Virus record (IMG/VR): IMGVR_UViG_3300042010_000106 | Span: 248,001 to 312,000 of that record | DNA: 64,000 bases | From: a virus | Direction: 5' to 3' (one strand) | In this document: in pieces, positions 4,852 to 53,167 of the stretch | How the letters are laid out: each line of letters begins with the position of its first letter | Position numbering within the stretch: position 1 is the first letter of the stretch | Notes under the pieces: generated by a model | The model's input: the letters and a program-made list of their open reading frames with translations, nothing else | Database searches by the model: none | Told to the model about the DNA's origin: nothing | Program-made: the position numbers and the translations under genes

Positions 4852-4861
4852 AATTTACAGT
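4852..4861 (-). promoter_or_regulatory. ACTGTAAATT box overlapping a stop codon
   Basis: Minus-strand ACTGTAAATT contains the TAA stop of the gene at 4855-5787 (Leu-stop = CTG TAA). No TATA follows at the five-base spacing, so promoter function is weaker than for the other copies. Confidence 0.3.
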
Positions 4862-5787
4862 TTTTTCGCTTTGGAATAGCCGTCGAGAATATCCGCCAAT
4901 CCTTTTGCAATTGCGTTATGGCCTTTATCGCTGTCGTCGTACAGAGTACGCAGCAAACGTGCATCACAATTCAACATTTCAACAGGCTGCTTTTCATAAC
5001 GCGTCTGGAAAGCCATCAGTTCTAAGCGTTCGTGTATTTCGTTGAGGCCGTTTCTCTCATAGTAGCGGGCGTCCGGGGTTGTGACGGGGCCGCAAAACAA
5101 AAGCATGCGCGCCTCTTTGACGATTTCTTTTACGGCTTCATTCACTTTTAAGCCACGGTCACGGATAAGCTGATCTTCGATTATGTTGAAGTGTTCACCA
5201 CGTTTGTCAGCGGTCGCAATGTCGGGCGTTTTATCCGCACGTACATTCTTCAGGTGCATATTTGCTGCGTGGATAATCTGCTTTGTCTGTTTCTCTACAG
5301 CCATGCCGTACGTAAGTGTACGTAAGTTCTTTTTATCTGTGAGAATTGTCAGGCCAGCGGTAGGATGCTTGCTTGTCCAATCTTTCAGGAAAATAAGCCC
5401 CTGCTTTTTCAGAGGTGCCTTTATCACAGATTTTTTCCACGTGCGTTCGTACCATTTTGCAGACAGGAAAACGTACTCACGGCCATTCAAAAAAACCGCG
5501 TCACCAAACCATGACATGATATAACGGCGTTTTTCAATGTAGTCGAGGTTTCGCAGGTCGAAAATGTCCACGATCTTTTTCGCGTGGTCTATCGCACTAT
5601 TTCGGATGTCTTCGGGCACGCCGAACAGCCGATCTTTCGCATTTTTAAATTGCGGGCCACCGTCTGTATATGTGTGCAGTAGCAAAGCTTTGTGAAGCGC
5701 TTGCTGGTGGTCTACAAACTTCTCTTCTAAATCACCGAGCGTAGCGCCGCTAACGACGGTGTTAAAAATGGGCAAATAAACTTTCAT
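4855..5787 (-). CDS. Unknown 310-residue protein
   Basis: 310 residues, basic, no signal or membrane segments. Residues ~75-160 are rich in Trp, Tyr and Lys. No catalytic signature recognised. It follows the 500-base gene-free leader at 5788-6290, which would form its 5' untranslated region if transcription starts near the box at 6288-6297. The ribosome-binding site TAGGAA lies before the ATG. Confidence 0.7.
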   Translation of the reverse strand: MKVYLPIFNTVVSGATLGDLEEKFVDHQQALHKALLLHTYTDGGPQFKNAKDRLFGVPEDIRNSAIDHAKKIVDIFDLRNLDYIEKRRYIMSWFGDAVFLNGREYVFLSAKWYERTWKKSVIKAPLKKQGLIFLKDWTSKHPTAGLTILTDKKNLRTLTYGMAVEKQTKQIIHAANMHLKNVRADKTPDIATADKRGEHFNIIEDQLIRDRGLKVNEAVKEIVKEARMLLFCGPVTTPDARYYERNGLNEIHERLELMAFQTRYEKQPVEMLNCDARLLRTLYDDSDKGHNAIAKGLADILDGYSKAKKL

Positions 5788-5872
5788 GAATTTCCTAAGT
5801 CTTTATCAATGGTTGGTGCGCAGGCCGGTGGGTCGGCTTTGGGAAAGGGGGCGGGCGGCAGGTGGGGATAGG

Positions 5873-5918
5873 GCGCCTTTCGGCGCTGTTATCGTTAGGA
5901 ACGTAGTGACTAGATAAC
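5873..5918. repeat. Two adjacent hairpins
   Basis: GCGCC-TTTC-GGCGC (5873-5886) is a tight tetraloop hairpin. Directly beside it GTTATC (5888-5893) pairs with GATAAC (5913-5918), with additional TAG/CTA pairing inside. Confidence 0.7.
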
Positions 5919-6227
5919 GAGCTGCCTTTGATCCAGAAAAGACTTATGGTTCGTTTTATGGAACATAAAATTCGGACACAATATGCCATTGAAAAATCAC
6001 AGAAGGCATGCAAAGCACACGCTCTTTCAAAGCTTTTCTTGTGGGGCTGCTGGGGGCTGCTCTTGCACTCGCATCTGCTGTCCCTTCGGGACGACAGGCT
6101 TGTTCGCTTCGCTCCCTCGCCTGTCTTTCTTTCGCTTCGCTCCAGCCTTTCTCGCAAGCTCGAAAGAGCAAACGCAATTCGTTCGAAGCTGGTTGAACCG
6201 CAAAGGAAGCAATGGCTCACTACGTTC
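5899..6227. repeat. Long-range 11-base inverted repeat
   Basis: GAACGTAGTGA at 5899-5909 is exactly complementary to TCACTACGTTC at 6217-6227, enclosing about 307 bases that are themselves full of hairpins. Confidence 0.65.
6093..6143. repeat. Hairpin with interlocking direct repeats
   Basis: GACAGGC (6093-6099) pairs with GCCTGTC (6119-6125). TTCGCTTCGCTCC occurs twice, at 6103-6115 (in the loop) and at 6131-6143. Confidence 0.7.
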
Positions 6228-6287
6228 GGGGTCGTTTCAAAACGCATACGTTCTGAACCTCCATTCCGCGCCGAGTACACATCCCCC

Positions 6288-6297
6288 AATTTACAGT
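6288..6297 (-). promoter_or_regulatory. ACTGTAAATT box
   Basis: Minus-strand copy of the recurrent box at the upstream edge of the gene-free region. No TATA at the usual spacing. It could start a transcript through the hairpin-rich leader into the gene at 4855-5787. Confidence 0.3.
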
Positions 6298-6395
6298 ATT
6301 AAAAAGGTCGATATTTTTGAGCCAAAAAGAAACGGTTTTACCTAATGAAAGCTTGTGTATTAACGCATTAATAAAAAACATGGGGTCACGGGAGA

Positions 6396-6418
6396 GCGAA
6401 AAACACGTGTATTTTTGC
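6396..6418. repeat. A/T-rich hairpin centred on CACGTG
   Basis: GC-AAAAA-CAC pairs with GTG-TATTTTT-GC around the palindrome CACGTG with one unpaired base. It could be a second terminator or an operator; nothing decides between them. Confidence 0.45.
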
Positions 6419-6485
6419 AGCGTAGACGCTCAGGATTACAGGTTCGCAAATCATTTGTGTATTTTCCTAATAAAAACCAAATAAA

Positions 6486-6519
6486 AGGCAATAAAAAAGG
6501 GAACCGTTTGGCTCCCTTT
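6486..6519 (-). terminator. Rho-independent terminator, leftward
   Basis: Read leftward, AAAGGGA (6519-6513) pairs with TCCCTTT (6502-6496) with further C-G pairs inside, followed by a U-rich run. It lies 18 bases beyond the stop of the leftward gene ending at 6538. Confidence 0.75.
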
Positions 6520-6537
6520 AGGTAAGGCAATGAAAGA

Positions 6538-7323
6538 TTAGGACTTGCTGGCTGTGAAATACGCACTCAATTCCTGAAGGTTGCTTTCAGGTTTGCGTTT
6601 CCATTCACCATGCGAAACCACTTGCGGTGCCAATGGGCAGGGGTCTTCTTTGTACAAAAGGCGTTTGCAAACCTCATGCAAAAGATTAACCAATTGCCCA
6701 TCGGTTATATCAAAACTCCAACCGGTTTGGCCGAAGTCGAATTGCAAAGCCAAGCGCGGTTCCTGATTAACCACTTCAGGTTCAGCAATTGCCTCTGTGA
6801 CAGCCGGTGCCGGATTGAAGAAATCATAAACTGCTTTGTTGATGGATTCACCAACAGGCAGACCATCGTGCGTTTCGAAAACTTCTTTGCCGGGATTCAA
6901 TTCGGCCACACGTGATTCAATGGTCTGTTCCGTGTCGTACGTGGCGTCAACCATTTCACGATAACCCGGTGCCTGACCTTTCCACACGTCCACGCCTTCA
7001 ATGGTCACGCGCAGCTTTTCAGAGCCGTACATGTCCACGTTGATAACGGTTTCGTCATCGTTCCAATTGAATGTGCGGATAGCTGCCGCTGTAGACTTCA
7101 GCTTGTGTTTATTTTTCAAACGCTTCAGGATTTCGTGTTTCACACCATCCCAAATTTTACCGAACGCAGCAGAATCGCTGTCGTGAATAACCTTCGCCAG
7201 CTTTTCGCCAGTCTGGTTACTCATGAACGGCATAATCATACGCAGCATTGCACTACGTTTTGCATCGCCTTTACGGCCCCGTGCAATTGCGATCATGTTT
7301 GACGCAATCAGTTTTTCGTTCAT
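6538..7323 (-). CDS. Unknown 261-residue protein
   Basis: 261 residues. The N-terminus (to ~100) is basic and helical; the middle contains an acidic, Pro/Ala-rich linker (about 170-190). No domain recognised. It overlaps the upstream gene by four bases and is the last gene of the leftward unit 9383-6538, followed by a terminator. Confidence 0.7.
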   Translation of the reverse strand: MNEKLIASNMIAIARGRKGDAKRSAMLRMIMPFMSNQTGEKLAKVIHDSDSAAFGKIWDGVKHEILKRLKNKHKLKSTAAAIRTFNWNDDETVINVDMYGSEKLRVTIEGVDVWKGQAPGYREMVDATYDTEQTIESRVAELNPGKEVFETHDGLPVGESINKAVYDFFNPAPAVTEAIAEPEVVNQEPRLALQFDFGQTGWSFDITDGQLVNLLHEVCKRLLYKEDPCPLAPQVVSHGEWKRKPESNLQELSAYFTASKS

Positions 7324-52432: not shown

Positions 52433-52645
52433 ATGAGCATAACGAAACAAGATCGTGCGCGTGCAAAAGCTGTGATGAAACAGTTTGAAATCGACGAAGC
52501 GGCCCGTATGCAAATGCAGAAAGATTGCACACTACAACCGAAGCTGGCTGAGTATCTGAATAGTCCTGAAGGCAAAACAGATATGAAAGCATTCATTGCG
52601 GACAAGCTGTCTACCCTGAGCAAATTGTTTGGGGTGAAATTGTGA
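52433..52645 (+). CDS. Unknown 70-residue helical protein
   Basis: Charged and helical, no motif. Three bases after the upstream stop and overlapping the next gene by four. Confidence 0.6.
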   Translation: MSITKQDRARAKAVMKQFEIDEAARMQMQKDCTLQPKLAEYLNSPEGKTDMKAFIADKLSTLSKLFGVKL

Positions 52646-52839
52646 GCCTCGATCCTGAAAGTGTGCAGTATATGAAAGACGCCAGCACCAAAGCGTTGGA
52701 AGAACTTCGCGAAAAAGAACCGTTCTTTCCGCGTTTCAATGATCGCCGGTTCTACGCAAAAAGTACATTGCCTGACGGCACTGAATTGCACATCATTGCG
52801 CGCCCGAGCGCAGTCAAGAAAGGTACACGGGTATTATGA
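52642..52839 (+). CDS. Unknown 65-residue protein (GTG start)
   Basis: Starts with GTG at 52642 overlapping the upstream stop (GTGA). Basic C-terminal half. No motif. Confidence 0.6.
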   Translation: MSLDPESVQYMKDASTKALEELREKEPFFPRFNDRRFYAKSTLPDGTELHIIARPSAVKKGTRVL

Positions 52840-52958
52840 TGGAATACGACGAAGATCACGAAGACGCAATGTGCGAACACGGCAACTACTTCAACCAAGT
52901 AGAATGCGAAGAGTGCATGAGCGCAAATGAAATTCCTGATTCCGGGGAAGAAGAATGA
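52836..52958 (+). CDS. 40-residue Cys/His mini-protein
   Basis: Two consecutive ATGs (52836, 52839). Very acidic with CEHG and CEECM, four potential zinc ligands (Cys13, His15, Cys24, Cys27). ATGA overlaps on both sides make the small frame credible. Confidence 0.55.
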   Translation: MMEYDEDHEDAMCEHGNYFNQVECEECMSANEIPDSGEEE

Positions 52959-53137
52959 AACGTCGAATCAGCCACCGTCGTGTGAAAATCATCATGGCTG
53001 CACAGCTACATTCATTGGAAAAACAATTCCAGTTTGAGCCGGACGACTATCACACCAGAAAAGTAAAGCGTATCTATATGCAGTGCGCGCAGATACACCT
53101 GAACGAACGTATATTCCCTGTACACGCGAAACTGTAA
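52955..53137 (+). CDS. 60-residue basic protein
   Basis: Arg/Lys/His-rich, helical. Its last codons CTG TAA are part of the promoter-like box at 53131-53149. Function unknown. Confidence 0.6.
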   Translation: MKRRISHRRVKIIMAAQLHSLEKQFQFEPDDYHTRKVKRIYMQCAQIHLNERIFPVHAKL

Positions 53138-53149
53138 ATACGTTGTATA
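53131..53149 (+). promoter_or_regulatory. Promoter-like box ACTGTAAATA-N5-TATA
   Basis: ACTGTAAATA (53131-53140), CGTTG, TATA (53146-53149), 19 bases before the next ATG. The layout equals 13177-13195, where the spacer is CGTCT. Confidence 0.6.
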
Positions 53150-53167
53150 GCACTAACTGAGGTTCGT

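What the first reader, a model, noticed from the sequence alone, without database searches (positions are those of the whole stretch)
5788..6300. 500-base hairpin-rich, gene-free region in an otherwise packed genome
Genes elsewhere overlap or nearly touch, yet this stretch codes for nothing credible. It differs in composition and contains nested structures: an 11-base complement (5899-5909 with 6217-6227) closing a domain that holds further stems, and repeated TTCGCTTCGCTCC. This is the expected look of a structured non-coding RNA, a long regulatory leader for the gene at 4855-5787, or an origin.
Basis: partly seen in the sequence, partly recalled or inferred. Interest (0 to 1): 0.62.

Follow-up and report, generated by a model that had tools for sequence, protein, structure and literature searches.

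The report
Conserved phage RNA beside TnpB-like protein
In a family of giant Pseudomonas-type phages, a gene-free stretch of about 500 bases is a strongly conserved, hairpin-bearing element that starts at a phage promoter and runs into a gene whose predicted shape resembles RNA-guided TnpB/Cas12 proteins, so it may be a new kind of guide-like RNA, although an origin of DNA replication is not excluded.

Summary
The gene-free region is real but longer than described (5788-6537). The window comes from a 312-kb jumbo phage related to HRDY3, Lu11 and PaBG; a long non-coding stretch sits in the same slot in 21 of 23 relatives examined. Overall folding energy is not above background, so the "hairpin-rich" claim fails that test. 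Comparative evidence is strong, however. HRDY3 and L087 agree at 86% of aligned bases here, against 42% amino-acid identity in the next protein. Perfect triloop hairpins with GNA loops are about 30-fold enriched on the strand read from a phage promoter at the region's edge, and one recurs 188-256 nt after that promoter with unrelated stem sequences. The gene it runs into (4855-5787) has a predicted fold whose 24 best PDB matches are all TnpB/Cas12-type; its catalytic glutamate appears lost. Best reading: a structured RNA, probably partner of this TnpB-like protein (confidence 0.38). Rivals: replication origin (AT-rich trough, ACCTAAT boxes, skew switches within about 30 kb in 10 of 10 genomes), or an unrelated non-coding RNA or leader. 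No Rfam family matches. Everything here is computational.

The parts
5788..6537 (-). whole non-coding slot, read in the direction of the two flanking genes
   Evidence: Gap between 6538-7323(-) and 4855-5787(-); same slot non-coding in HRDY3, Lu11, PaBG, NCTB, ten Erwinia/Dickeya/Yersinia phages and seven IMG/VR loci
6496..6519 (-). terminator-like hairpin with T-run after the upstream gene, inside a block shared with HRDY3 and Lu11
   Evidence: consensus match only; 6483-6522 is 87-88% identical to HRDY3/Lu11
6275..6480 (.). AT-rich segment with two CCTAAT boxes (6341-6346, 6466-6471), possible unwinding element
   Evidence: Lowest-GC 150-bp window of the slot is in the lowest 0.06-0.64% of the genome in 5 of 5 Pseudomonas-type phages; CCTAAT is rare in the genome (30 copies) and densest here
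6276..6296 (-). phage promoter-like motif CTGTAAAT...GTGTA; presumed transcript start just after it
   Evidence: Same motif annotated as putative middle/late promoter in Lu11 at the same place; CTGTAAAT has a gene start within 120 nt downstream 35 times in its own direction against 8 in the opposite one
6238..6255 (-). HP1: CAGAACG-TATG-CGTTTTG
   Evidence: Counterparts with altered stems in HRDY3, L087, L095, L085; matched by eye
6217..6227 (-). 5' arm of the 11-base complement (GAACGTAGTGA)
   Evidence: not seen in relatives
6131..6143 (-). GGAGCGAAGCGAA copy holding the GCGAAGC mini-hairpin sequence
6103..6115 (-). second GGAGCGAAGCGAA copy
6080..6092 (-). mid hairpin GTCCC-GAA-GGGAC, 204 nt after the promoter
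   Evidence: Hairpin with GNA/GNNA loop and unrelated stem 188-256 nt after the promoter in L085, L095, HRDY3, L087, Lu11
5943..5981 (-). HP2 domain: TGTCCG-AA-[TTTTATG-TTC-CATAAAA]-CGAACCAT
   Evidence: Frame TGTC...GACCAT with outer stem GUCC/GGAC, GUCUG/CAGAC, GUUUG/CAAAC or GUCUU/AAGAC in relatives; own copy has one C-A mismatch (matched by eye)
5888..5918 (-). HP3: GTTATC...GATAAC, whose loop carries the 3' arm of the 11-base complement (5899-5909)
   Evidence: GTTACC-TA(A)C-GGTAAC in HRDY3/L087
5873..5886 (-). HP4: GCGCC-GAAA-GGCGC
   Evidence: GCGCTC-GAA-GAGCGC, GCGC-GCAA-GCGC, GCGCC-AAA-GGCGC in relatives
5841..5873 (-). C-rich tail CCCTATCCCCACCTGCCGCCCGCCCCCTTTCCC
   Evidence: Pattern occurs once per genome, here, in own, HRDY3, L087 and Lu11
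4855..5787 (-). 310-aa protein with predicted TnpB/Cas12-like fold, probably nuclease-dead
   Evidence: AlphaFold model (one of five models confident), Foldseek PDB and BFVD; no Pfam or PF07282 sequence match

Best explanation
The stretch is a functional, non-coding, structured element. A phage promoter at about 6296 drives a leftward transcript of about 500 nt (about 6290 to 5788) that carries a fast-changing array of GNA-loop hairpins, a recurring 3' set of stems (HP2, HP3, HP4) and a C-rich tail, and runs into gene 4855-5787. That gene encodes a small protein with a TnpB/Cas12-like fold that seems to have lost the RuvC catalytic glutamate. The most likely role of the RNA is to be the bound partner (scaffold and possibly guide) of that protein, as reRNA/omega-RNA is for TnpB or the gRNA for TldR, giving an RNA-guided DNA-binding regulator rather than a nuclease. 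Shown by computation: the non-coding slot, its conservation, the hairpin enrichment, the promoter motif, the fold match. Inferred: transcription, RNA processing, binding to the protein, and any DNA target.
For: HRDY3 vs L087: 86% identity over 477 aligned nt (0.79 per alignment column vs 0.48 shuffled, z 15), while neighbouring 4-fold sites are 46-57% identical and the downstream protein 42%. GNA triloop hairpins with stem >=5 on the transcribed strand: 14 vs 0.42 in shuffles (0/300), against 3 with the complementary TNC loop. Recurrent hairpin at a similar distance from the promoter with different stem sequences. Promoter motif at the region's 5' edge. The downstream protein is homologous in own, L085, L087, Lu11 and HRDY3 (19-34% to own) and its predicted fold has TnpB/Cas12f/Cas12m/Fanzor-type proteins as the 24 best PDB matches (best E=1.2e-4) and TnpB-like viral proteins in BFVD. 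Precedents: conserved RAGATH-18 RNAs of unknown role proved to be guide RNAs of the adjacent IS607 TnpBs (PMC11061315); phage-borne nuclease-dead TldRs with gRNAs exist (PMC13418256).
Against: The RNA bound by ISFba1 TnpB lies 3' of the gene and is 184 nt (PMC11061315); here the RNA is 5' and about 500 nt. No guide segment was identified; a search of the phage's own genome found only chance-level 15-nt matches. PaBG and L093 carry a GNA-hairpin region before an unrelated protein, and in L090/L091 the nearest recognisable gene is a DNA methyltransferase; enterobacterial phages keep the slot without these hairpins. RNA folding energy is not exceptional. The fold call rests on one confident model of five, from four sequences, with TM-scores 0.3-0.4.
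Confidence: 0.38

Rival explanations
1. Replication origin. The AT-rich trough with ACCTAAT boxes is the unwinding/initiator site; transcription from the adjacent phage promoter opens the duplex (as at T4 oriF/oriG, from general knowledge), and the displaced strand folds into very stable GNA/GNNA DNA mini-hairpins that help load primase or helicase.
For: Slot kept in nearly all relatives whatever the downstream gene. Keto skew at 4-fold sites, corrected for coding strand, has a significant two-arm pattern in 10 of 10 genomes (p 0.000-0.032) with the origin-type switch 0.4-30 kb from the slot (HRDY3 -0.4 kb, 5-95% interval -5 to +7) and the opposite switch 88-124 kb away. GC trough and CCTAAT cluster. 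GNA and GNNA loops fit the DNA mini-hairpin rule (PMC4686876). Holliday junction resolvase and primase genes nearby.
Against: In transcription direction 8 of 10 switches lie 4-30 kb downstream, and the interval for the window's own genome (+9 to +48 kb) excludes the slot, so resolution is about 20 kb. The keto measure was chosen after the separate GC and AT results were seen. No DnaA boxes. Conservation is higher after the promoter than in the AT-rich part (0.79 vs 0.62). Enterobacterial relatives lack the hairpins.
Confidence: 0.27
2. Structured non-coding RNA or long 5' leader with another role, unrelated to the TnpB-like protein and to replication, for example control of the downstream operon or titration of a host RNA-binding protein.
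For: Same RNA-level evidence as the best explanation; GNRA loops in HP4 of own, Lu11 and L085; the C-rich tail before the start codon could be a Rho-loading site (inference).
Against: The region stays while the downstream gene changes, which speaks against a gene-specific leader; no Rfam match; in enterobacterial phages the CTGTAAA motif sits close to the gene start instead.
Confidence: 0.27
3. A hot spot for short palindromic repeats that spread or expand selfishly in a permissive gap, without a function of their own.
For: Repeated GAGCGAAGCGA-type units; stem sequences differ between phages.
Against: 86% identity between HRDY3 and L087 while neighbours are far more diverged; order and spacing of elements kept; such hairpins are rare elsewhere in these genomes.
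Confidence: 0.05

Closest known systems
IS607 TnpB with RAGATH-18-derived reRNA (PMC11061315)
   Same: Conserved structured non-coding RNA next to a protein of TnpB fold; the RNA was known before its function
   Different: RNA 5' of the gene and about 500 nt instead of 3' and 184 nt; protein 310 aa, not recognised by Pfam; no guide segment identified; transposon ends not searched for
TldR, TnpB-like nuclease-dead repressors (PMC13418256)
   Same: Phage-encoded TnpB-like protein, RuvC glutamate apparently lost, RNA alongside
   Different: Jumbo phage; RNA upstream and large; no target known; no sequence similarity to TnpB detected
T4-type transcription-primed origins (general knowledge)
   Same: Phage promoter, AT-rich stretch, non-coding, near the replication skew switch
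   Different: Skew switch not centred on the slot in most genomes; long hairpin array with strand bias
GOLLD/ROOL ornate phage RNAs (PMC12286853)
   Same: Large phage-encoded non-coding RNA of several hundred nt
   Different: No Rfam match; no tRNA in this window, though tRNAs occur a few kb away in PaBG, L092 and L093
GNA/GNNA DNA mini-hairpins such as GCGAAGC (PMC4686876)
   Same: Same loop rule
   Different: Described as short stable oligonucleotides; here an array at a conserved genomic slot

Membership tests
TnpB/Cas12 superfamily (protein 4855-5787) | TnpB-type fold | tested here: met
   24 of 24 best PDB matches are TnpB/Cas12/Fanzor-type, best E=1.2e-4, but TM only 0.3-0.4 and one of five models confident
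TnpB/Cas12 superfamily (protein 4855-5787) | sequence match to PF07282 or other TnpB families | tested here: not met
   No Pfam match for the protein; PF07282 absent from the genome while controls ring
TnpB/Cas12 superfamily (protein 4855-5787) | RuvC D-E-D catalytic triad | tested here: not met
   By eye on alignment A8: motif I Asp in 4 of 5, motif II Glu in none, motif III Asp in 3 of 5; positions inferred, not read from a superposition
TldR | nuclease-dead TnpB with its own gRNA that directs it to DNA | not testable with these tools
   Glutamate loss fits; RNA binding and targeting need experiments
TnpB reRNA/omega-RNA | RNA at the 3' side of the gene, ending in a guide | tested here: not met
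   RNA lies 5' of the gene; no guide identified
Known Rfam RNA families | score at or above a family's gathering threshold | tested here: not met
   No match in the window; best sub-threshold match E=1.9; relatives show only tRNAs
Phage replication origin | strand-composition switch at the site | tested here: inconclusive
   Switch within 0.4-30 kb in 10 of 10 genomes but mostly off-centre
Phage replication origin | AT-rich unwinding element and repeated initiator boxes | tested here: inconclusive
   GC trough in all five Pseudomonas-type phages; ACCTAA/CCTAAT enriched in own, HRDY3, Lu11, partly L087; not in PaBG or enterobacterial phages
Phage replication origin | initiation of DNA synthesis | not testable with these tools
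   Needs infection experiments
N4-type virion RNA polymerase hairpin promoters | phage-encoded RNA polymerase that reads them | tested here: inconclusive
   PF04998 (beta') absent with working controls; PF00940 gave nothing but no control rang

The most novel reading that the evidence does not exclude
A previously undescribed class of RNA-protein system in jumbo phages: a roughly 500-nt 5' RNA with GNA-loop hairpins paired with a miniature, catalytically dead TnpB-like protein, placed in the replication-origin domain, where it may control replication or phage/host gene expression by RNA-guided DNA binding.
Probability: 0.22. Interest if true: 0.85.

Novelty: new variant of a known kind. Interest (0 to 1): 0.6.

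Why it matters
If the RNA and protein work together, this is a TnpB-derived system with an unusual layout (large RNA in front of the gene) in giant phages, adding to the TldR class of RNA-guided regulators. If it is the origin instead, it gives a testable replication start for the PaBG/Lu11/Erwinia jumbo phages. Either way, a region annotated as empty, or filled with dubious small ORFs in public records, is a conserved functional element absent from Rfam.

Tried and rejected
Chance or no function: rejected by conservation above synonymous sites. Hidden gene: no conserved frame. Energetically exceptional fold: not found. Known RNA family: none. Phage RNA polymerase promoters: no beta' subunit found. 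G-U versus A-C test for RNA rather than DNA pairing: 6 vs 2, too few to decide. RNA versus DNA folding parameters: no clear difference over ten phages. Skew was measured in four ways: raw AT skew (largely reflects gene direction), third codon positions, GC and AT at 4-fold sites separately and the keto combination, the last chosen. Structure of the upstream conserved protein (phrog_21298): low-confidence model, not searched further. PDB profile searches with the two flanking proteins gave nothing significant. More relatives: IMG/VR motif scans returned known loci plus unrelated matches; GTDB scan none. MAFFT did not align HP1-HP4 structurally, so no covariation statistic is claimed.

Full report
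What and where. The window is bases 248001-312000 of a 312,325-bp virus record whose last bases match its first over about 127 bases (inferred), so it is probably complete. Its proteins are closest to those of Pseudomonas jumbo phages HRDY3, Lu11 and PaBG and, more distantly, Erwinia, Dickeya and Yersinia phages, the group that PMC7412058 calls Lupandier. The window has no tRNA and no Rfam match.

Observation. The region is gene-free but longer than reported: 5788-6537 between 6538-7323(-) and 4855-5787(-). The 11-base complement and the two TTCGCTTCGCTCC copies are exact. Folding energy is ordinary on both strands and in 120-nt windows; over ten relatives it is only modestly better than shuffles, about equally on both strands and with RNA or DNA parameters. 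The case for a real element therefore rests on comparison, not on energy.

Conserved slot. Between the gene after the phrog_21298 homologue and the next gene, a long non-coding stretch is present in HRDY3 (630 bp), Lu11 (748, with two dubious tiny ORFs), PaBG (1477), Yoloswag (500), SNUABM_17 (392), fHe-Yen9-02 (479, also with tiny ORFs), AD1 (967, partly a truncated gene), JA29 (459), Y3 (388), Alexandra (497), SNUABM_5 (492), SNUABM_35 (329), SNUABM_7 (342), NCTB (712) and in IMG/VR loci L085, L087, L090-L093 and L095: 21 relatives. The slot was read from annotation for named phages and from ORF gaps for IMG/VR loci; L086, L088 and L089 duplicate Lu11, L087 and PaBG and are not counted, and L095 ends inside the element. 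Two further relatives do not show it plainly: Salmonella phage Sen-NF, annotated with genes abutting end to end, and Alcaligenes phage Afa-NA1, whose 482-bp gap lies elsewhere in the gene order. I did not examine these two further.

Anatomy in transcription direction (minus strand here). Terminator-like hairpin 6519-6496; AT-rich part with two CCTAAT boxes; promoter-like CTGTAAAT at 6296-6289; HP1; a variable stretch with GCGAAGC units and the mid hairpin GTCCC-GAA-GGGAC; HP2; HP3; HP4; C-rich tail; gene 4855-5787. Lu11's record annotates the same promoter motif at the same place. In four genomes CTGTAAAT has a gene start within 120 nt downstream 35 times in its own direction and 8 times in the opposite one. 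PaBG and L090-L093 carry a related motif (GTGTCAATAC or similar) at the same boundary (by eye).

Hairpins. In ten phages' regions, perfect triloop hairpins with stems of at least 5 pairs and GNA loops number 14 on the transcribed strand against 0.42 in dinucleotide shuffles (0 of 300 reach it); with the complementary TNC loop 3 against 0.27; with other loops 11 against 4.6. HRDY3 and L087 share three of these, so they are not all independent. In the whole own genome GNA/TNC loops are only 26 of 260 such triloops. GNRA and GNYA tetraloops are also enriched, on small counts. A hairpin with GNA or GNNA loop lies 188-256 nt after the promoter in own, L085, L095, HRDY3, L087 and Lu11, with unrelated stems apart from the HRDY3/L087 pair; PaBG and L091-L093 have similar ones. 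HP2 keeps the frame TGTC...GACCAT around changing stems. HP1-HP4 were matched by eye.

Selection. HRDY3 and L087 are 86% identical over 477 aligned bases of the transcribed part (0.79 per column, shuffled 0.48), whereas the flanking genes have 4-fold-site identity of 57% and 46% and the downstream proteins 42% amino-acid identity. More distant pairs such as own versus L085 are weaker (0.58 vs 0.47 per column, z 5). Between HRDY3 and L087 conservation before the promoter is lower (0.62).

Downstream protein. The 310-aa product of 4855-5787 has no Pfam match. Its AlphaFold model from four related sequences has pLDDT 76.8 and pTM 0.79, but the other four models are poor. Foldseek against the PDB lists TnpB, Cas12f, Cas12m, Fanzor2 and relatives as the 24 best matches (best E=1.2e-4, TM 0.3-0.4); BFVD gives TnpB-like viral proteins, headed by a 462-aa entry that by its length is probably the Lu11 protein (inference). 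In alignment A8 the motif I aspartate is present in four of five, the motif II glutamate in none. PF07282 is not found in the genome. PaBG/L093 encode an unrelated protein there; in L090/L091 a DNA methyltransferase gene follows; enterobacterial phages have a protein of about 550 aa with polymerase-A-like motifs (weak PDB match to DNA polymerase gamma, E=0.25).

Origin evidence. At 4-fold degenerate sites, corrected for coding direction, keto skew has a significant two-arm pattern in all ten genomes analysed, and the minimum lies 0.4-30 kb from the slot, median 6.8% of genome length against 25% expected at random (combined p about 2e-4, not corrected for shared ancestry, and the measure was chosen). 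In transcription direction most minima are downstream, and the own-genome interval excludes the slot. The GC trough is in the lowest 0.06-0.64% of the genome in five Pseudomonas-type phages and 0.05-4.7% in five others; CCTAAT/ACCTAA is enriched in own, HRDY3, Lu11 and partly L087. CCTAAT was noticed by reading the sequences; an unbiased k-mer ranking places it and ACCTAA sixth and seventh, behind C-rich words and AAAGGG.

Judgement. That the region is functional is well supported. What it does is not settled. The coincidence of a conserved hairpin-bearing element with a TnpB-like neighbour, together with the RAGATH-18 (PMC11061315) and TldR (PMC13418256) precedents, makes an RNA partner the single most likely role, at 0.38; origin 0.27; other RNA or leader 0.27. 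The roles are not fully exclusive.

Noticed in passing
G000, first and last about 127 bases: The ends of the 312-kb record appear identical over about 127 bases, so it is probably a complete circular map.
   Followed up: partly
L074:3427-4393 (Dickeya phage AD1): Part of the 967-bp gap looks like coding sequence continuing the shortened downstream gene, suggesting a frameshift or annotation error.
   Followed up: no
L071, L073, L075-L080, downstream gene of about 550 aa: Family with polymerase-A-like motifs (DMSSSQ, AKxLxYG, EHDGA); only a weak PDB match to DNA polymerase gamma.
   Followed up: partly
LT598654.1 positions 37, 85, 134 (phage NCTB): CCCGGAAGGG, a hairpin with a GNNA loop, occurs three times in the genome, all in this slot.
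   Followed up: partly
window 52514-53167: Another ORF-poor gap of 654 bp, the longest in this genome by ORFs of at least 80 aa; not examined.
   Followed up: no
L090 10196-11701 and L091 10291-11484: DNA methyltransferase genes follow the hairpin region in these two phages (the L090 match is below the Pfam cut-off).
   Followed up: no
PV359490.1 (Sen-NF) and PV550095.1 (Afa-NA1): Short records (108 and 78 kb) with homologues of jumbo-phage genes; Sen-NF is annotated with genes abutting end to end.
   Followed up: no
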